The notes under the pieces were generated by a model. The model was not told where the DNA came from. It was given only the letters and a program-made list of their open reading frames with translations, and made no database searches. A program made the translations under genes and the position numbers. A stretch of 45,766 nucleotides of DNA, from positions 1 through 45,766 of the forward strand of contig JAIEFT010000048.1 in the NCBI GenBank assembly GCA_029066805.1, written 5' to 3'. Source of the stretch: Clostridiales bacterium. Its GTDB lineage: Bacteria > Bacillota > Clostridia > Christensenellales > Pumilibacteraceae. This document shows, piece after piece, positions 38,283 to 45,720 of the stretch (position 1 is the stretch's first letter; the number at the start of each line of letters is the position of its first letter).

Positions 38283-38322
38283 AAAAATAGCAGGAACTTG
38301 AAATTAAGTTCCTGCTATTTTT
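38283..38322. terminator. Strong terminator of the defence operon
   Basis: AAAAATAGCAGGAACTT (38283-38299), loop of 6, AAGTTCCTGCTATTTTT (38306-38322): a perfect 17-bp stem with T tracts on both sides, 21 bases after the stop of the last operon gene. Confidence 0.93.
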
Positions 38323-38343: not shown

Positions 38344-40386
38344 TTAAACAATATCATGAAAATAAGTGTCCGCTTGCTCAATAACATACGTATTCCAATA
38401 TTCTACAAGAGTTTGATCCATGAAATCTGTTGGTGTTTTCCCTAACTTTTTTAGCTCAACTTTGTCTGGAACATGAACTTCTGTTAAGGTAGAAACAAGA
38501 GTAAGCCCTGATACTTCTCGATTTTTATTTAAGTGCTGTATTAGTCTGTTTAAAATTGTCACAAGATAATTATATTTTATCTCATCAAGCTGAAGATCTT
38601 CTTTTGCTTTGATATTAAATACAACTTCACTTTTTCCATTAGTTAAAAATTGTGGTATACTATCGTAAGTCAATGCCATAATTTTATAATCGCCAACAGA
38701 TTTGGTTGCCCAAGCGGCACCGCCCTCAAATAAGCAATATTCGCTGCTTCCGAAGTTTGAAGAAGTTAAAAAGAGAATATCGTTATTTTTTCTTATAATA
38801 TATTGTTTAATAAGAATTGACAACGGAGTAAGATTATCAGTATCAAGCCCATTTGACGAGTAAAAAATTTCGCATGCCTCGTCTTTAATATTTCCGTTAA
38901 ATCCCAAATGAACTAAATACCTATAAATAAAATCTGAAAATATGTGGTCTTTGCTTGCATGGGATAAGAAAACAGTAAATTCACTTTTCGCTTCACTATT
39001 AACATCGCCTTCAAGTTGCGCAACGGCATATTGCTCTATTTTTAACCGATCTTGCGGTTTTATGTCGGGTAAATCTGCCAACATGCCGTGAAAATCTTTT
39101 TGAAATCTTGTTTTAGAGCGTGTCGATATACTTATATCATCCGTCTTTTTGCGTTCTCTAATCTTATCGGCTAAGGCTTGACGTTTTGAGACGAGGGAAT
39201 TGCCTATTTTTGTCAGTATTTCTTTTAGCAACAAAAACCGCGGGTCTTGTGTGTTAAAATCTTGACGTCCAGCCGTAGCAATATCTTCCAAATCATCGTC
39301 ATCTAAAACATCAAAAGAAACTTCGCCTTCTATATAATTTACGAATGCACGCGTAATGCCTAAATACTCAATCATATTTGACATCGCTAATTTGTTTCTT
39401 ACATAAACTCGTAATTGGTTGGGATTATAAAATTGATTCTTTATGTAGCGGGAATCATTATTTTTGGCATCTTCGCCATCTATTGTAGCATGAATTCCTA
39501 TCCAACCGTCTAGCGTATAATGTTTTTTTATACCGAAAAATTCTTGTTCGCCTGAAATATGAATGTCCGTTGCAGAAAATGATACAATTTCAGTATCGGC
39601 ACTCATTTTTTTATCTATGCCATTTTTTGTTTTATAGGACATATTAAAACTGTTATTTTTACATTCTTGAACATAATCTTCATTGCTTGTATAAACATAC
39701 GCTAAATTTTTAAAAGCAATTTGTTTGTTGATTGGCAGAAACTTGTGTGGAGTAGTATCATTTTGTATTAATTTAATCCATATCTTTTGTTCAAGTTTGT
39801 CGTACAAAAACAGGTTTGATAATCGGCATTCCAAAGATTCAAATGCCTTGTCTCCCAATCCCTTCATATTGACATTCTTTAAGCAAATGATTGTTCCGTG
39901 GCCTAAAGACATCAACTTTTTTAAACTTTCAAGTTCACTGAACTCATCAATTTCAACAGGTTCAAGCTGCGGAGAATCGTCTTCATCAAGCCCTGATACG
40001 TCCAATTTCCAACAGGTTAAATCCGAATTAATAGTTTTTGTTATTATGGTAAAACAATCAGATAAATATAAAGCCGCTAATTTGCCAATGCCTTTGCGTC
40101 CCAAAGTTTTTCCATCATTAAGTCCTTGTTCGTTGCGGCGCTTATTATATCCTATTTTAATGTAATGATCTGCAATATCTTCTGCAGACATCCCTTTTCC
40201 CTCGTCAAACACTTCTACATATGAGTTCTCTTTATCTCTAATATCAATAGTTAAATAAATATTGGGTGCTTTTGCATCCAACCCATTAGCTACCAACTCA
40301 GAAATTGCTGAGCTAACGTTTGAATAGAGTTGTTTGCCAAACATCTTTAATGCAGAATATGTTAATGTGAATTTGATGCCGTCCAT
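38344..40386 (-). CDS. GHKL (MORC/Hsp90-type) ATPase fused to a TIR domain
   Basis: 680 residues after AAGGAG. The N-terminal GHKL ATPase has the N-box 'SELVANGLDAKA' (29-40), G1 box 'DEGKGMS' (61-67) and lid 'LGRKGIGKLA' (95-104), as in MutL/Hsp90/MORC proteins. Residues 110-460 include an S5-like region ('NQLRVYVRNKLAMSNMIEYLG', about 323-343, given by its ends) and a helical segment. Residues 468-600 are a TIR domain: 'FTVFLSHASKD' (470-480), 'DILFLTSSNFGSSEYCLFEGG' region with Glu554 as likely catalytic residue of an NAD hydrolase. Known: prokaryotic MORC-like ATPases occur in restriction-modification operons, and bacterial TIR domains in anti-phage systems consume NAD. Inferred: senses DNA state or phage and triggers NAD depletion. 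Last gene of the operon, 13 bases after a methyltransferase. Confidence 0.85.
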   Translation of the reverse strand: MDGIKFTLTYSALKMFGKQLYSNVSSAISELVANGLDAKAPNIYLTIDIRDKENSYVEVFDEGKGMSAEDIADHYIKIGYNKRRNEQGLNDGKTLGRKGIGKLAALYLSDCFTIITKTINSDLTCWKLDVSGLDEDDSPQLEPVEIDEFSELESLKKLMSLGHGTIICLKNVNMKGLGDKAFESLECRLSNLFLYDKLEQKIWIKLIQNDTTPHKFLPINKQIAFKNLAYVYTSNEDYVQECKNNSFNMSYKTKNGIDKKMSADTEIVSFSATDIHISGEQEFFGIKKHYTLDGWIGIHATIDGEDAKNNDSRYIKNQFYNPNQLRVYVRNKLAMSNMIEYLGITRAFVNYIEGEVSFDVLDDDDLEDIATAGRQDFNTQDPRFLLLKEILTKIGNSLVSKRQALADKIRERKKTDDISISTRSKTRFQKDFHGMLADLPDIKPQDRLKIEQYAVAQLEGDVNSEAKSEFTVFLSHASKDHIFSDFIYRYLVHLGFNGNIKDEACEIFYSSNGLDTDNLTPLSILIKQYIIRKNNDILFLTSSNFGSSEYCLFEGGAAWATKSVGDYKIMALTYDSIPQFLTNGKSEVVFNIKAKEDLQLDEIKYNYLVTILNRLIQHLNKNREVSGLTLVSTLTEVHVPDKVELKKLGKTPTDFMDQTLVEYWNTYVIEQADTYFHDIV

Positions 40387-40399
40387 TTAAGACTCCTTA

Positions 40400-41368
40400 T
40401 CATAAGTTTTTTAATTGAGTTATTATTTCTTTTAAAATGTATTGCAATACATCTACAACAACGCTATTGCCGAATTGTTTATACGCACTCGAAATCTCTT
40501 TTGCATACTTGAAATTATCGGGGAATCCCATTAATCGTGCACATTCTCTTGGATATAGCTTTCTAACAGAACCGTCTACATAATACATTCCAGTTTTACC
40601 GCCTAAGCCACCACTTTGAGACGACAAAGTGGTCGCATAACCATCTTGACTATAAATCCTTTCTCCTTGTCGTCCTTTACCAATTCTTGCGACTTGTATT
40701 AGCCCTTTCCTATGTAAAGGTTTCTCATTCTTAGTGTACTCTCTTTTGACGCTCACATCATATTTGTCAGCCTCATCATACAATATTTCTCGCAAACAAC
40801 TTGTTTTATTTTTGACTTTCGGGAAAGTAAAAGATTTAACTTTCAAATTCTTTTTGAATGCTACAATATATAATCTTTCACGCGCTTGCGGAACTCCGAA
40901 ATCAGAAGCTGTAAGTAACTCGTCATAAACATCGTATCCTATTTGGTTTAATTGTTTTCTGATTTCAGTTATTGTTTTGGAATTATTATGCGTTTTAAGA
41001 TTTTTAACATTTTCCAATAGCAATATTTTGGGTTTGTGAAATCTTGCAATTCTAATTATTTGATAAAATAATTTTCCATGAGGATCATCAAACCCATTTT
41101 GATTGCCAGATATACTAAAAGGTTGACAAGGAAAGCCTGCGCATAAAAAATCATGTGGGGGGATTTCACTATTTTTAATTTTCGTTATATCCCCAGCAGG
41201 CTCAATTCCAAAATTCTCTTGGTATACTTTGCGAGCCTTGCCGTCAATATCAGACGCAAAAACACATTTTGCCCCAAATGAAGATAGTGCCAGATGGAAA
41301 CCGCCAATCCCACAAAATAAATCAATGTAAGTTACATTATTTAAGCATTTATTTTCTATATCTATCAT
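40400..41368 (-). CDS. C5 cytosine DNA methyltransferase (third in operon)
   Basis: 322 residues after GAGG. All core motifs of DNA (cytosine-5-)-methyltransferases are present: motif I 'DLFCGIGGFH' (16-25), motif IV 'GFPCQPFS' (78-85) with catalytic Cys81, motif VI 'LLENVKNL' (118-125), motif VIII 'QARERLYIVA' (161-170), a target-recognition region of about 90 residues, and motif X 'KQFGNSVVVDV'. It transfers methyl from SAM to cytosine in a short DNA site; the site cannot be read here, and similarity to the M.HpaII-like enzyme upstream is confined to the motifs. No restriction enzyme is paired with it. The gene starts 7 bases after the preceding methyltransferase and appears more AT-rich than the housekeeping genes. 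Confidence 0.92.
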   Translation of the reverse strand: MIDIENKCLNNVTYIDLFCGIGGFHLALSSFGAKCVFASDIDGKARKVYQENFGIEPAGDITKIKNSEIPPHDFLCAGFPCQPFSISGNQNGFDDPHGKLFYQIIRIARFHKPKILLLENVKNLKTHNNSKTITEIRKQLNQIGYDVYDELLTASDFGVPQARERLYIVAFKKNLKVKSFTFPKVKNKTSCLREILYDEADKYDVSVKREYTKNEKPLHRKGLIQVARIGKGRQGERIYSQDGYATTLSSQSGGLGGKTGMYYVDGSVRKLYPRECARLMGFPDNFKYAKEISSAYKQFGNSVVVDVLQYILKEIITQLKNL

Positions 41369-41375
41369 GTAGTCC

Positions 41376-42293
41376 TCATATGTAACAATTAAATATTTTG
41401 CTTAAGCTTACCGTATTGCCAGCTTGTTTGTATTGCTCTCGCTCGGGAACAGTATCGGGAAAGATAAATGTTGTTGGAAAGCCTTGTAATACCAAGCATT
41501 CGGTAGGTGTTATATTGCGTATTCCGAAGTTGTCTTTTATAATCGGCACACGGTTAGGATACGTTCCCATATTGGCTTTAAGAGTGAAAGCGATGCCGTC
41601 TTTGCTTGCTTGAATGCCCCAATCGGAGAAGCGATAAAGCTGTTTATCGTCAACTATTGTTTTTTGTAGTCTTGCAAATTTCGGTTCATCGGGCGAATAA
41701 TAGTAGCGGTCGTCAACTTTAACTGAAGTATTGATAATATCTGTAATATGTTTTTCGAGCGGTACTTTCTCGGGAAAACGAAAGCTGTCGCAAGCCGCTT
41801 TGTCATTGAAAGCTACAATATATGTGCGCGTTCTATGTTGCGGAACACCGTAGTCGCAAGCATCGGCTATAATATAGCGAATGTAGTAGCCGCGTCCTGC
41901 AAGCTCGTTATGAATCACATTAAAAGTTTTGCCGTTGTCGTGTTCGGTTAGGTTCGCTACATTCTCTAAAAATACGATTTGCGGTTGTTTTGCGTCTATA
42001 ACTTTACCGACTTCAAAGAATAGATTGCCGCGCTCGTCGCTAAATCCTTTTTGCTTTCCGCATATCGAGAACGGTTGGCACGGAAATCCAGCAATAACAA
42101 TATCACAATCGGGTATAGATGATTTGTCCACGGAACGAATATCGGCTTCGATCAAATTAACTTTAGGGAAGTTATGTCGATAGGTCATACAAGCAAATCT
42201 ATCGTTATCGTTTGCCCAAATAATTTCATGTCCTGCTTGTTCGAAAGCAAGATCAATTCCGCCTATTCCGCAAAAAAGACTGCAAACTTTCAT
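41376..42293 (-). CDS. C5 cytosine DNA methyltransferase (second in operon)
   Basis: 305 residues. Motif I 'SLFCGIGGIDLAF' (5-17), motif IV 'GFPCQPFS' (69-76, catalytic Cys72), motif VI 'FLENVANL' (108-115), motif VIII 'PQHRTRTYIVAF' (151-162), a short recognition region, and motif X 'KQAGNTVSL'. The ATG comes 1 base after the TAA of the HpaII-like restriction gene, a classic translational coupling. Target site unknown. It differs clearly from both other methyltransferases of the operon, so the three are not recent duplicates. It may protect a site used by the ATPase-TIR protein or a strand of an asymmetric site (inference). Confidence 0.92.
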   Translation of the reverse strand: MKVCSLFCGIGGIDLAFEQAGHEIIWANDNDRFACMTYRHNFPKVNLIEADIRSVDKSSIPDCDIVIAGFPCQPFSICGKQKGFSDERGNLFFEVGKVIDAKQPQIVFLENVANLTEHDNGKTFNVIHNELAGRGYYIRYIIADACDYGVPQHRTRTYIVAFNDKAACDSFRFPEKVPLEKHITDIINTSVKVDDRYYYSPDEPKFARLQKTIVDDKQLYRFSDWGIQASKDGIAFTLKANMGTYPNRVPIIKDNFGIRNITPTECLVLQGFPTTFIFPDTVPEREQYKQAGNTVSLSKIFNCYI

Positions 42294-42294
42294 T

Positions 42295-43446
42295 TTAGCG
42301 TGTATGTGTGCAGAATCGAACAGATATGTTCAGCGGCAAATAATATTCTCCGTCGATTTGAATGATGCGACTCCAATTATACTTGTCGGAACTTACGTAC
42401 TCAAAATAAGTATTGCGATATAAATAATCACGGAATGTTTCTCTATCGTTTGAATGGTAGCATATAACATCACCGTCATCCATAACCACAATATACCCAC
42501 CGTTTACTTGTTCTTTACCGTCCCATTTGTAAGCCGCAGTCATACCTGTAAATCCTGCCATAAGAAAATCTTTAACGGCTTTCTCATAATAGACGGTAGG
42601 GTTGGGAACATTTAACGGATTGGCGGCACTCATTCTTTCGACTGTTTCTTTTACTTCGGTATCTCCAGTCGAATCTATCAAGCGTTCTTTTACGCACCAA
42701 GCCAAAATTTTGCTCATCGACTCGCGCACAAGAAAGAGATTCTCGTCGTATGTAGGGATTTGCGTTCTGCAATAAGAGAGTGTCAAATTATGATCGTAGA
42801 TATATTTTTTGCACAACTTCCAACCGCGTCCTTTACCGTCTGATATTGCATTGAACTCTTGCATAACGGTATCATTGCAACCGGAAACCTTATACAAAAA
42901 TTGCGAAGATGATCCCGCATTGAACAACGTGGGATTTTGCCCGAATTTAGATTTGATAGAAAAGCCCATTACCGACACTATCGAAGTTTGCCCGTCACGA
43001 ACTTCGATAAAAATATCGTTCTTGCCTCCGAACTGTTTCTTTAATGCTTTAACAGCCGGAGCTTTCGGTTTCCCGACATATATTACTTTTGCGAATTCGC
43101 AAACGGAGTTCGGTGCAGGTACGGACATTCCTTTTGCGCGTTTAATACCGTCAAACAATGTTGTCGCTTGCTTTACAAATTCATCCATCGGAATAGACAC
43201 AAGAACCGTATTGGCATTTTGCGGCTTTACCGTAACGGAAGCGGTATCTTCATCGACTATGTATTCCAAAACTTGAGTATCGTATTCTTGGCGAATGATT
43301 TTGAGAATATCTAGATAACTGTCGAGTTTCTTTTTAAGCATTTTATCGGCAGTGTAGAGCTTTCCTTCGCCGAGCAATTTCAGCAACACATAAAATTCCG
43401 CCCATTCGCCTTTATTTAATTTTTTACCGATTATGCTCTCAGTCAT
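42295..43446 (-). CDS. HpaII-like type II restriction endonuclease
   Basis: 383 residues, a length close to R.HpaII (about 360). The N-terminal 'NKGEWAEFYVLLKLLGEGKLYTADKML' region (11-37, given by its ends) and the middle 'VMGFSIKSKFG', 'PTLFNAGSSSQFLYKV' segments fit the RE_HpaII family, which cleaves CCGG. A candidate PD-(D/E)xK core lies around 'NDIFIEVRDGQTSIVSVMGFSIKSK', but I cannot assign the catalytic residues with certainty. The ATG follows a strong AAGGAGG inside the end of the M.HpaII-like gene (8-base overlap), the usual layout for a methyltransferase-restriction pair in which modification is made first. Confidence is raised by that partner; cleavage site is inferred, not shown. 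Confidence 0.78.
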   Translation of the reverse strand: MTESIIGKKLNKGEWAEFYVLLKLLGEGKLYTADKMLKKKLDSYLDILKIIRQEYDTQVLEYIVDEDTASVTVKPQNANTVLVSIPMDEFVKQATTLFDGIKRAKGMSVPAPNSVCEFAKVIYVGKPKAPAVKALKKQFGGKNDIFIEVRDGQTSIVSVMGFSIKSKFGQNPTLFNAGSSSQFLYKVSGCNDTVMQEFNAISDGKGRGWKLCKKYIYDHNLTLSYCRTQIPTYDENLFLVRESMSKILAWCVKERLIDSTGDTEVKETVERMSAANPLNVPNPTVYYEKAVKDFLMAGFTGMTAAYKWDGKEQVNGGYIVVMDDGDVICYHSNDRETFRDYLYRNTYFEYVSSDKYNWSRIIQIDGEYYLPLNISVRFCTHTR

Positions 43447-44434
43447 TCTTTAGTACCTCCTTAACTTTTTCCGCAATGGCTCTGATAACGGGGACGGTTA
43501 CGCTGTTCCCGAACTGCTTGTACAAATGCACATCCGCCAGTATAAGTTTGTAACTGTCGGGAAAACCTTGCAATCGCGCCCATTCTCTCGGCGTCATTTT
43601 ACGAACGCCATCCTTATTGATTTCGCCCTTAATATGTGTAGTGGGTGTAAGATCGGTTTGCCGTTTGTCTATAATCAAATTACGCTCTCTACCCATACCA
43701 CCACAAACAATCGCACCCGCAACATCATCCCAATCTCGAATCTCATAACCAAATCCGTGTCCCTTGGCGGCGTGGCGTGCTTTATGGTCGCGGAGTGTTT
43801 GCATATAGCATTCGCTCAAATAATATTTTGAAGCAACCGGCCCTTCCAAAATGTCTTTGATACGTTTCGACGAATCGGTAGGTGTCGGGAATATAAATTC
43901 TTTCGGCGCAATATCGTTACGAAAAGCAACTATATAAATACGTTCTCGGTTTTGCGGTACTCCAAAATCTTTGCTATTTAGAATTTGTTCGAACGGAGTG
44001 TATCCAATTTCGCGGAGCGTATTTTTTATAATATCGAAAGTTCTACCTTTATCGTGAATGGTAAGCCCTTTCACATTCTCGCAGAATATAACTTTCGGTT
44101 TTTTCTTTTCGCAAATACGCGCAACATCAAAGAACAACGTACCGCGAGACATTCCTTTGTAGTCATCTTCAAAGCCTTTGCGCTGTCCAGCAAGACTGAA
44201 AGCCTGACAAGGGAATCCTGCAAGACAGATATCGAAATCGGGAATATCGTCCTCGGATATTTTCGTAATATCTCCGGCAATCTCGAAATCGTCGTTAAAA
44301 TTTGCTTTATATGTTTTTTGCGCGTATTCGTCCCATTCGCTGACGAACACGGTTTTCATTTCTTCCCCGAAAGCCTGTTCGAATCCCAAGCGTATGCCGC
44401 CGATACCGGCAAATAAGTCTATACTTTTTAGCAT
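43439..44434 (-). CDS. M.HpaII-like C5 cytosine DNA methyltransferase
   Basis: 331 residues from the ATG at 44434, which has GGAG at 9 bases; 11 further codons upstream lie in the intergenic gap and are not needed. Motif I 'DLFAGIGGIRLGF' (6-18), motif IV 'GFPCQAFS' (73-80, Cys76), motif VI 'FCENVKGL', motif VIII 'PQNRERIYIVAF', motif X 'KQFGNSVTVPV'. The recognition region contains 'HGFGYEI', 'GGMGRERNLIID', 'TPTTHIKGEINKDGVRKM' and 'TPREWARLQGFPDSY', which closely resemble what I recall of M.HpaII (CCGG). Modifies host DNA to protect it from the restriction enzyme encoded immediately downstream. Preceded by the Vsr-like gene with a 29-base gap. Confidence 0.88.
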   Translation of the reverse strand: MLKSIDLFAGIGGIRLGFEQAFGEEMKTVFVSEWDEYAQKTYKANFNDDFEIAGDITKISEDDIPDFDICLAGFPCQAFSLAGQRKGFEDDYKGMSRGTLFFDVARICEKKKPKVIFCENVKGLTIHDKGRTFDIIKNTLREIGYTPFEQILNSKDFGVPQNRERIYIVAFRNDIAPKEFIFPTPTDSSKRIKDILEGPVASKYYLSECYMQTLRDHKARHAAKGHGFGYEIRDWDDVAGAIVCGGMGRERNLIIDKRQTDLTPTTHIKGEINKDGVRKMTPREWARLQGFPDSYKLILADVHLYKQFGNSVTVPVIRAIAEKVKEVLKND

Positions 44435-44463
44435 CTTTGTTTCTCCACTACAAATAATCTTAA

Positions 44464-44883
44464 TCAACCGTTTTTTCGATTGTTATAAGCTAGCTGGATT
44501 TTATCTGCACAATCTTGTAGATTTTTTCTGACTTCAAAATCCCAAAACCGCATTACTAACCAATCAAGAGATACAAGTTCTTGAGTTACCTCATAATCAT
44601 GTTCAATGTTACGCTCGATCTTAGGTATCCAATATTCGCGACGACTTTTGAAATCATTTTTTTGATTCTCCCAGTCATATCCGTGCCACATTTTTCCATC
44701 CACGAAAACGGCTATTCTTGCGCCAAGAAAAACAATATCTGGTTTACCGTAAAGTTTTTTGTAATTCTTCCGATATCGTAACCCTCGCCGCCATAATTCT
44801 TTTCGCAACAATAATTCTGGCTTTGTGTCCTTGCTTTTGTTGCTTCTCATATTACGTGAGATTTGTTCTTTGGTATTAGGCAT
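44464..44883 (-). CDS. Vsr-like endonuclease lacking the structural zinc ligands
   Basis: 139 residues from the ATG at 44883 (GAGG at 7 bases; the ATG follows the regulator stop after 1 base). Vsr enzymes nick DNA beside T:G mismatches formed by deamination of 5-methylcytosine and are usual partners of C5 methyltransferases. 'SRNMRSNKSKDTKPELLLRKEL' region (9-30), 'YGKPDIVF' with the catalytic Asp, 'VFVDGKMWHGYDW' and 'YWIPKIERNIEHD' follow the family order. Compared with E. coli Vsr 'FTHGCFWHHHHC', the Cys and His that bind the structural zinc are replaced (K, G, Y, W) and the later Cys of 'VWECALR' is absent ('FWDFEVR'). It probably belongs to the zinc-free branch; repair or restriction use is unproven. 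Confidence 0.85.
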   Translation of the reverse strand: MPNTKEQISRNMRSNKSKDTKPELLLRKELWRRGLRYRKNYKKLYGKPDIVFLGARIAVFVDGKMWHGYDWENQKNDFKSRREYWIPKIERNIEHDYEVTQELVSLDWLVMRFWDFEVRKNLQDCADKIQLAYNNRKNG

Positions 44884-44884
44884 T

Positions 44885-45076
44885 TCAGTCCTCAAAGTTC
44901 AAATTGTTACGAATACAAAAATCACGTATAGCTTTCTTGGCTTTCATATTTGGTTCGGTTTTACCCGTTTCCCAACGGCAAATCGTAATAGCGTTTACTC
45001 CCAGTTCGGTAGCCATCTCGTCTTGTGTTAAAAGCAATCTTTCTCTTGCATTCTTAACCTTTTCGGAATAAGTCAT
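44885..45076 (-). CDS. XRE-family regulator (controller-like)
   Basis: 63 residues from the ATG at 45076, which has GGAG about 10 bases upstream; an upstream TTG at 45109 is less likely. Nearly the whole protein is one Cro/C1-type helix-turn-helix: 'RLLLTQDEMATELGVNAITICRWETGKTEPN' (given by its ends, about 13-43), with 'QDEMATELGV' and 'NAITICRWETG' as the two helices. Small proteins of this type act as controller (C) proteins in restriction-modification operons, delaying or limiting restriction. First gene of the operon. The 9-bp direct repeats at 45112-45131 over the promoter are the likely target. Confidence 0.85.
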   Translation of the reverse strand: MTYSEKVKNARERLLLTQDEMATELGVNAITICRWETGKTEPNMKAKKAIRDFCIRNNLNFED

Positions 45077-45110
45077 ATCGCTCAACTCCAACTTACATTT
45101 AATTATCAAT

Positions 45111-45139
45111 ATTTTAGCATTTTTTTAGCATAAAGTCAA
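45111..45139 (-). promoter_or_regulatory. Promoter and candidate operator of the defence operon
   Basis: TTGACT (45139-45134), 17-base spacer, TAAAAT (45116-45111). ATGCTAAAA occurs twice (45131-45123 and 45120-45112), 11 bases apart, covering the spacer and -10 box, a layout suited to autoregulation by the XRE protein. Confidence 0.75.
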
Positions 45140-45156
45140 CGGTATATTATATCGAA

Positions 45157-45416
45157 AATCGGGTTTCCCGATTGTTCCTGCGAAGCGATAGCCGAGCATC
45201 AAAAAAGTCGAAATCTACGGATTTTGGCTTTTTTCTTTACCTGCTTGCAAAAACAGCGTTTTATTGGCTATTTTCCCAAAATAATCGCAGTATGGAGGCA
45301 AGCCATTCATTTAGTATTTTGCTTTCGTTTTGGTGCGTATTCTGTAACTGAACAAAGCAGGTAAAGAAAAGTACACCAAAGTGTCTTTTGATGGTAATCA
45401 ATCGGGAAACCCGATT
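45157..45416. repeat. Nested inverted repeats flanking a 110-base centre
   Basis: Outer arms AATCGGGTTTCCCGATT (45157-45173) and its reverse complement (45400-45416); each arm is also a palindrome. Inner arms TTTTCTTTACCTGCTT (45231-45246) and its perfect reverse complement (45355-45370). A terminator-like hairpin (about 45201-45236) lies near the left inner arm. No gene inside. Confidence 0.75.
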
Positions 45417-45464
45417 CTTTTGTTGGCAAAAATTTTTGCCTTCTTGGTTGCAAAACCGAGCATA

Positions 45465-45720
45465 ACTGTGCTTGGTTATATGGACGGATGCGAAAGAAAT
45501 TTTCGGTATTTCGGTTGTGAAACGCAAATAAGTGTCCTTGGATATATAGAGGGGTTTGAAAAATTATTTAAAGAAATTTAAGTTCAGACCGTCAACTTTT
45601 TAAGATAAGTGTGCTTGGTTATATGGAGGGATTTTGAAACTTTTTTAAGAAATTTTTACGTTAGACCCCGAACTTTTTGAGAAAAGTGTCCTTGGATAAG
45701 TGAAGGGAATTTTATGTTAG
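45465..45720. repeat. 77-bp degenerate direct repeats
   Basis: 'gtgcttggttatatggacgg', 'gtccttggatatatagaggg', 'gtgcttggttatatggaggg' and 'gtccttggataagtgaaggg' start units at about 45465, 45530, 45607 and 45684. The last two intervals are 77 bases. Each unit continues with an A/T-rich tract and, in units 2 and 3, 'gttcagaccgtcaacttttt'-like text. No coding function seen. Confidence 0.7.

What the first reader, a model, noticed from the sequence alone, without database searches (positions are those of the whole stretch)
38344..45139. Operon combining an HpaII-type restriction-modification unit with a GHKL ATPase-TIR fusion
Seven genes in one direction, most separated by 1-30 bases or overlapping, share a single consensus promoter and end at a 17-bp-stem terminator: XRE, Vsr-like, M.HpaII-like, R.HpaII-like, two further C5 methyltransferases, and a GHKL-TIR protein. 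MORC/MutL-like GHKL ATPases are known from restriction-modification neighbourhoods, and bacterial TIR domains that destroy NAD are known in anti-phage defence, but I know of no described system with this composition. The packing suggests a two-tier defence: DNA cleavage first, and NAD depletion by the TIR fusion if restriction fails or modification is lost.
Basis: partly seen in the sequence, partly recalled or inferred. Interest (0 to 1): 0.78.

Follow-up and report, generated by a model that had tools for sequence, protein, structure and literature searches.

The report
Methyltransferase-linked GHKL-TIR gene pair
Next to an ordinary HpaII-type restriction operon sits a second gene pair, a DNA methyltransferase and a protein that joins the ATPase part of a restriction enzyme to a TIR domain; it probably lets the cell react to unmarked foreign DNA by destroying its own NAD instead of cutting the DNA, but this has not been tested.

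Summary
In detail: seven tightly packed minus-strand genes encode XRE, Vsr, a C5 methyltransferase (M1), R.HpaII, two more C5 methyltransferases (M3, M2) and a GHKL-TIR fusion, ending at a 17-bp hairpin. They are two modules. The HpaII unit occurs without the rest in 11 of 12 other genomes read; M2 plus GHKL-TIR is lower in G+C and occurs without HpaII beside it (L078). The fusion fits the description of paraMORC4 (Iyer 2008), so its architecture is not new. Its N-terminus matches BbrUII/HgiDII-type restriction enzymes, its C-terminus the NADase SpbK, with Glu554 kept. All 10 GHKL-TIR loci held lie within 0.6 kb of a C5 methyltransferase gene. New here: the methyltransferase stays while the output changes. 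M2-type (M.HhaI-like) enzymes sit directly before GHKL-TIR, GHKL-nuclease or GHKL-kinase-like genes; in one genus a TIR and a nuclease locus share about 98% DNA identity across that gene while their GHKL parts share 30%. Best reading: a modification-gated suicide system, restriction-modification with an NADase arm (about 0.55). Specificity, NADase activity and defence are untested; a search for a shared recognition region was negative.

The parts
45111..45139 (-). promoter-like site TTGACT-17-TAAAAT with TG
   Evidence: 10 of 12 matches; number of such sites not above chance
44885..45076 (-). XRE-family regulator, 63 aa from ATG 45076 (the ORF list gives a TTG start at 45109)
   Evidence: present upstream of Vsr-M1-R.HpaII in 5 of 12 other HpaII genomes
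44464..44883 (-). Vsr-type mismatch endonuclease
   Evidence: Pfam Vsr 3.1e-27, NCBIfam vsr 2.2e-38
43439..44434 (-). M1, C5 methyltransferase of the HpaII unit (ORF list start TTG 44467)
   Evidence: directly before R.HpaII in 12 of 12 other genomes read
42295..43446 (-). R.HpaII-type restriction endonuclease
   Evidence: PF09561 1.2e-79, 268.6 bits against a cut-off of 25
41376..42293 (-). M3, C5 methyltransferase that often travels with R.HpaII
   Evidence: directly after R.HpaII in 8 of 12 other genomes
40400..41368 (-). M2, M.HhaI-like C5 methyltransferase (predicted GCGC), partner of the GHKL gene
   Evidence: 332.8 bits to M.HhaI over residues 1-316 including the target-recognition region; directly upstream of a GHKL gene in 7 of 7 loci of the M2 clade
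38344..40386 (-). GHKL-S5-TIR fusion (paraMORC4-like), 680 aa: GHKL+S5 about 1-410, helical linker about 410-465, TIR about 466-590, Glu554
38283..38322 (-). intrinsic terminator hairpin, 17-bp stem, 6-nt loop

Best explanation
M2 and the GHKL-TIR protein form a restriction-modification-like pair in which the DNA-cutting arm is replaced by a TIR NADase. M2 marks the host's own sites (predicted GCGC). The GHKL-S5 module, the same kind of ATPase that is found in BbrUII/HgiDII-type restriction enzymes, engages unmodified DNA, alone or together with M2, and closes as an ATP-bound dimer. That brings TIR domains together and they degrade NAD+, arresting or killing the infected cell. The pair rides downstream of an XRE-Vsr-M1-R.HpaII-M3 restriction operon and is probably transcribed with it. 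Shown here (by sequence): gene order, families, kept ATPase and TIR motifs, M.HhaI-like M2, 10 of 10 linkage of GHKL-TIR to C5 methyltransferases in the loci held, and exchange of TIR, nuclease and kinase-like outputs under the same type of methyltransferase. Inferred: sensing of unmodified DNA, dimer closure, NADase activity, abortive outcome, GCGC specificity, and which protein reads the site.
Against: No region of the GHKL protein is shared specifically by loci with the same methyltransferase type (21 pairs, best excess 0.31, null 95% point 0.327), so direct reading of the site by GHKL is not supported. VcSduA, a GHKL-nuclease relative, protects E. coli when expressed by itself, and the main text of that paper nowhere has the words methyltransferase or methylase (PMC12137116): a GHKL effector can work, without harm to the host, with no methyltransferase of its own. 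Kinase-like and nuclease-type partners do partly track the methyltransferase tree (hk 3 changes against 6.8 shuffled, nuc 12 against 21.5), so the exchange is not equally free for all outputs. GCGC is not avoided in the window (314 against 282.8 expected in 1-38000). The AlphaFold2 models of the TIR part failed. No assay of a homologue came up in the searches.
Confidence: 0.55

Rival explanations
1. GHKL-TIR is a self-standing phage sensor (of a phage protein, DNA ends or replication structures, as SpbK senses a portal protein); the methyltransferase next to it has a separate job, such as shielding host DNA or regulating the gene.
For: VcSduA, GHKL plus Shedu nuclease, protects E. coli by itself and the paper's main text mentions no methyltransferase (PMC12137116; this check raised the rival from 0.22 to 0.25). 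3 of 83 nuclease-type GHKL ORFs show no methyltransferase in the held DNA and one has it 4.5 kb away. No shared recognition region was found.
Against: 10 of 10 GHKL-TIR loci have a C5 methyltransferase within 1 kb, 7 of them immediately upstream on the same strand; the methyltransferase differs in kind from locus to locus but is never missing in the ten.
Confidence: 0.25
2. Two-tier device: GHKL-TIR guards the HpaII system and fires when restriction fails or modification is lost.
For: HpaII-M3-M2-GHKL order recurs in G572 with TIR (read from two contigs) and in viral contig L105 with a kinase-like output; co-directional packing.
Against: In 11 of 12 other HpaII genomes no GHKL gene or M2 lies beside the unit in the stretch read (for G735 only about 2.2 kb downstream were available); M2-GHKL-TIR occurs without HpaII beside it in L078, whose genome carries its HpaII cassette on another contig; the two parts differ in G+C.
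Confidence: 0.12
3. The TIR domain is a signalling enzyme or a scaffold rather than an NAD-depleting effector.
For: TIR domains can make messengers (PMC12847820, passages); related GHKL proteins carry kinase-like outputs.
Against: No separate effector gene follows in the operon (the terminator comes at once); the only solved structure matched is SpbK, an NADase.
Confidence: 0.08

Closest known systems
paraMORC4 (Iyer et al. 2008, PMC2292703)
   Same: GHKL plus S5 plus C-terminal TIR with Hx[ST]xD motif (HASKD here), described as one of the families found in neighbourhoods with methylases and Vsr
   Different: the 2008 paper suggested that the TIR might be a nuclease or a binding site; the constant methyltransferase partner, HhaI-like M2 and exchange of outputs are added here
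BbrUII/HgiDII-type restriction enzymes (NCBIfam NF050001; paraMORC3-like)
   Same: N-terminal GHKL-S5 module and C5 methyltransferase partner
   Different: C-terminal nuclease replaced by TIR; 179.3 bits against a cut-off of 550
GHKL-kinase proteins beside C5 methylases (Bellieny-Rabelo 2021, PMC8011034)
   Same: closest N-terminal relatives outside the window's own TIR group (38-44% identity; the TIR protein L079 is at 40%), methyltransferase directly upstream in 7 of 7
   Different: second HATPase domain instead of TIR; [quoted passage not shown]
SpbK
   Same: TIR domain with aligned glutamate
   Different: SpbK's N-terminal portal-sensing domain is absent
HpaII restriction-modification systems
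   Same: R.HpaII and C5 methylase
   Different: carries Vsr, XRE and a second methylase (M3) and, here, the added M2/GHKL-TIR pair

Membership tests
paraMORC4 | GHKL domain with ATP-binding motifs and S5 domain | tested here: met
paraMORC4 | C-terminal TIR with Hx[ST]xD motif | tested here: met
   HASKD at 476-480; SpbK profile match
paraMORC4 | groups with the paper's own paraMORC4 sequences | not tested
   those sequences were not at hand; membership rests on the description
BbrUII/HgiDII restriction enzymes | full-length match over the curated cut-off | tested here: not met
   179.3 bits against 550; only profile positions 2-369 of 659 match
BbrUII/HgiDII restriction enzymes | C-terminal nuclease domain | tested here: not met
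   TIR there instead
SpbK | TIR domain with the NAD-site glutamate | tested here: met
   Glu554 aligned with Glu192 by hand count
SpbK | NADase activity | not testable with these tools
   needs protein
SpbK | SpbK N-terminal domain | tested here: not met
   N-terminus is GHKL-S5; the PADLOC spbK model matches only residues 461-568 at profile 139-239 of 308
HpaII restriction-modification | RE_HpaII endonuclease beside a C5 methylase | tested here: met
   same order in 12 of 12 relatives read
HpaII restriction-modification | cleavage of CCGG | not testable with these tools
   CCGG is scarce in the window (81 against 195.2 expected in 1-38000), which is only suggestive
M.HhaI | full-length similarity including the target-recognition region | tested here: met
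   QGERIYS and the KTGxY region kept; which residues contact DNA is recalled, not tested
M.HhaI | methylates GCGC | not testable with these tools
   needs methylation data
HEF_HK / Response_reg_2 systems | HEF_HK domain in the kinase-like relatives | tested here: inconclusive
   Pfam scans reported a second HATPase_c copy but no HEF_HK; the next gene gave only marginal Response_reg (0.029 and 0.037 in two loci)

The most novel reading that the evidence does not exclude
A class of restriction-modification systems in which the methyltransferase is the constant self-mark and the 'restriction' arm is interchangeable: the same GHKL sensor design carries a nuclease, a TIR NADase, a kinase-like or another output, so that lack of a DNA methylation mark can trigger cell suicide or signalling instead of DNA cutting. 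The methyltransferase itself may supply the sequence specificity.
Probability: 0.4. Interest if true: 0.85.

Novelty: new variant of a known kind. Interest (0 to 1): 0.63.

Why it matters
If methylation status licenses a TIR NADase, restriction-modification would not be limited to cutting DNA, and an 'unmarked DNA' signal could be coupled to suicide. It would give paraMORC4, described in 2008 and named in no other paper of the held open-access library (search for the word), a testable function. It also offers natural pairs of loci, such as L077 and L101, with the same methyltransferase and different outputs, for finding which part reads the DNA.

Tried and rejected
Shared recognition region: a column-window test over 21 locus pairs with the same methyltransferase type but distant GHKL proteins found nothing beyond the null. 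A first version on rows cut at 430 residues showed an excess near the cut end (window residues 424-430 and beyond); I take it as an end effect, as it did not hold with full-length rows; the best spot, residue 459, also stays inside the null.

TIR structure: two AlphaFold2 jobs (and 129/132) failed for the TIR part (pLDDT mostly under 50, and mean 33); only one TIR relative (L125) was eligible as an alignment row. No claim is made from them beyond the N-terminal half.

TIR as a single origin on the GHKL tree: rejected (p-AU 0.0004), because four kinase-like proteins nest among the TIR proteins; whether TIR was lost once or gained twice is open. One long row (L089) was removed in a rerun with the same count for TIR.

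Site avoidance: GCGC is not depleted in the window; uninformative.

Viral scans with the fusion alone, with the close-relative alignment and with R.HpaII found no relatives; the TIR-only scan found one locus, on the contig already held as L125. The kinase-like label rests on a second HATPase copy and similarity to L016; [quoted passage not shown]

Rows dropped: duplicate short loci (L001, L004-L014, L055-L069, L090-L100) and GHKL ORFs under 480 aa (several broken ones) were left out of the 123. For the GHKL tree, nuclease-type rows over 55% identical to one already kept, nuclease-type proteins under 560 aa, and 18 of the 23 'other' proteins were left out (63 rows kept). Methyltransferases under 250 aa or over 1 kb away were left out of the methyltransferase tree. 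Many of the 83 nuclease-type loci are near-copies. The output labels come from HMMs built here, seeded with the loci they label; for TIR they were confirmed independently by PADLOC in 10 of 10.
Full report
What is there. The window is one contig (C43) of a 1.93 Mb, 61-contig draft genome. On its minus strand seven ORFs run from 45076 to 38344. With ATG starts the spacing is 1, 29, -8, 1, 7 and 13 bases. Pfam, PADLOC and NCBIfam identify XRE, Vsr, C5 methyltransferase M1, R.HpaII, C5 methyltransferases M3 and M2, and a GHKL protein whose C-terminus is a TIR domain. A 17-bp perfect hairpin follows the last stop (z -7.9). The promoter-like site at 45139-45111 is well placed but not above chance in number.

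Two modules. M2 and GHKL-TIR have GC 0.340 and 0.338 (GC3 0.25 and 0.28); the five upstream genes 0.37-0.43; two neighbouring host genes 0.49-0.51. A survey of 396 genomes of the order found R.HpaII in 13 including the window's. In the 12 others, read with flanks, M1 precedes R.HpaII in 12, M3 directly follows it in 8 (seven, plus G572, where one contig ends inside R.HpaII and another begins in it, followed by M3, M2 and GHKL-TIR), and XRE is present in 5. All five genes without M2/GHKL stand in G425, G559 and G617 (in G617, and likewise in G735 and G794, the R.HpaII frame is interrupted). M2 and GHKL-TIR are attached in G572 only. G617 has its HpaII cassette on one contig and Vsr-M2-GHKL-TIR on another (L202, L078). 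So XRE-Vsr-M1-R.HpaII-M3 is a unit by itself and M2/GHKL-TIR an add-on. In six relatives of the genus that were read (19 other genomes searched, 18 carry the gene), the transglycosylase gene that neighbours the operon in the window has other genes upstream, and no operon gene was found in the 5.7-7.1 kb held, so the operon was probably acquired here.

The composite recurs. In viral contig L105 a fused M1::R.HpaII protein (RE_HpaII 4.5e-134) is followed by M3, M2 and a GHKL protein with a kinase-like output. The arrangement HpaII-M3-M2-GHKL thus was seen three times (window; G572, inferred across two contigs; L105), twice with TIR and once with a kinase-like end.

Linkage to methyltransferases. 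Of 123 GHKL ORFs of at least 480 aa, a C5 methyltransferase of at least 250 aa lies within 1 kb in 10 of 10 TIR, 7 of 7 kinase-like and 79 of 83 nuclease-type loci (many of the last are near-copies), in 5 of 5 short ones, and in 2 of the 18 others, which by length and weak similarity look mostly like MutL (not tested). Of the 10 TIR loci 7 have it immediately upstream on the same strand, 1 adjacent and convergent, 2 within 0.6 kb with a Vsr gene between. The window's genome has four C5 methyltransferase genes, three of them here.

The methyltransferase stays, the output changes. M2 aligns with M.HhaI over its length including the target-recognition region (332.8 bits). Seven loci carry M2-type enzymes (the six others 57-83% identical to M2) directly before a GHKL gene: three with TIR (window, L077, L078), three with nuclease (L101, L082, L084), one kinase-like (L105). 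L077 and L101 come from one genus: their M2 proteins are 95% identical, their GHKL parts 30%; DNA identity is 94-99% per 100 bases from 1201 to 2100 of L077 (mean about 98) and drops on both sides. Each junction has an independent witness (window and L078 for TIR; L082, whose GHKL groups with L101's, for nuclease), so an assembly error is unlikely. On the GHKL tree of 63 rows, TIR and four of the seven kinase-like proteins form one group (98/95) and TIR needs 2 changes; TIR as one clade is rejected (p-AU 0.0004). On the methyltransferase tree of 66 rows the ten TIR-linked enzymes are scattered (10 changes, shuffled mean 9.5), whereas kinase-like (3 against 6.8) and nuclease-type (12 against 21.5) partners cluster more than chance. 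Reruns, the GHKL tree without the long row and the methyltransferase tree with immediate neighbours only, give 2 and 8 (of 8 rows) changes for TIR.

Mechanism. A protein with a restriction enzyme's ATPase half, beside a methyltransferase in all ten loci, and related to proteins ending in a nuclease, most simply does what restriction enzymes do (react to unmodified DNA) with a different output: NAD+ loss. What reads the DNA is open. If GHKL read the site itself, loci with the same methyltransferase should share some GHKL region; none was found. That test is weak (21 related pairs, alignment-dependent), but with the exchange of methyltransferases it leaves room for the methyltransferase itself supplying specificity. 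Against the whole idea stands VcSduA, a GHKL-nuclease protein that works by itself in E. coli (PMC12137116); on checking this I lowered the main reading from 0.58 to 0.55, the novel case from 0.42 to 0.40, and raised the self-standing sensor from 0.22 to 0.25.

Prior work. Iyer et al. 2008 (PMC2292703; abstract and passages) described paraMORC4 (GHKL-S5-TIR with Hx[ST]xD) among families of restriction-modification neighbourhoods and paraMORC3 with a nuclease. PMC8011034 (abstract, outline and passages) described GHKL-kinase proteins with C5 methylases. PMC12137116 (passages) showed that a GHKL-Shedu nuclease defends against phage. PMC5867850 (passages) reports M.HgiDII as recognising GTCGAC; the paper on BbrUII itself was not held. 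Searches for a tested GHKL-TIR or methylation-gated TIR system brought up none in the held open-access library (listings only, plus passages of PMC9122126); subscription papers and preprints are not covered.

Verdict. A real, well-read locus; a known protein architecture in a two-module operon; new evidence that a methyltransferase-GHKL pair exchanges its output, including for a TIR. Function inferred, not shown.

Noticed in passing
window 1-38000: GGCC is almost absent (8 found, 115.8 expected) and CCGG scarce (81 against 195.2), while GCGC is normal; GGCC is also low (ratio 0.08-0.49) in 12 of 13 related loci counted.
   Followed up: partly
window 45462-45709: Four imperfect 28-nt direct repeats spaced 66-77 bases upstream of the operon near the contig end; similar sequence occurs on two other contigs of the genome.
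   Followed up: partly
window 45157-45416: About 260 bp bounded by copies of a palindrome (AATCGGGTTTCCCGATT) with an inner inverted repeat, just upstream of the promoter-like site; may be a small mobile element.
   Followed up: no
window 30053-30330: tRNA-Ala and tRNA-Ile genes side by side, as in an rRNA spacer, but Rfam reports no rRNA in the window at its gathering scores.
   Followed up: no
L105:1-2097: A single ORF joins an HpaII-type methyltransferase and an R.HpaII endonuclease.
   Followed up: no
L083:2612-4273: GHKL protein (553 aa) ending in a Hypoth_Ymh / PD-Lambda-3_B-like domain beside a C5 methyltransferase: a fourth output type. L102, L017, L018 and L184 have GHKL proteins of similar length; L017 was scanned and showed no such domain.
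   Followed up: partly
L101:8231-9724: A phage-type integrase gene follows the M2/GHKL-nuclease pair.
   Followed up: no
L003 (Escherichia phage PhiR44_1): This phage carries a ParaMORC3 gene convergent with a Dcm gene between portal and replication genes; many IMG/VR loci show the same convergent pair.
   Followed up: partly
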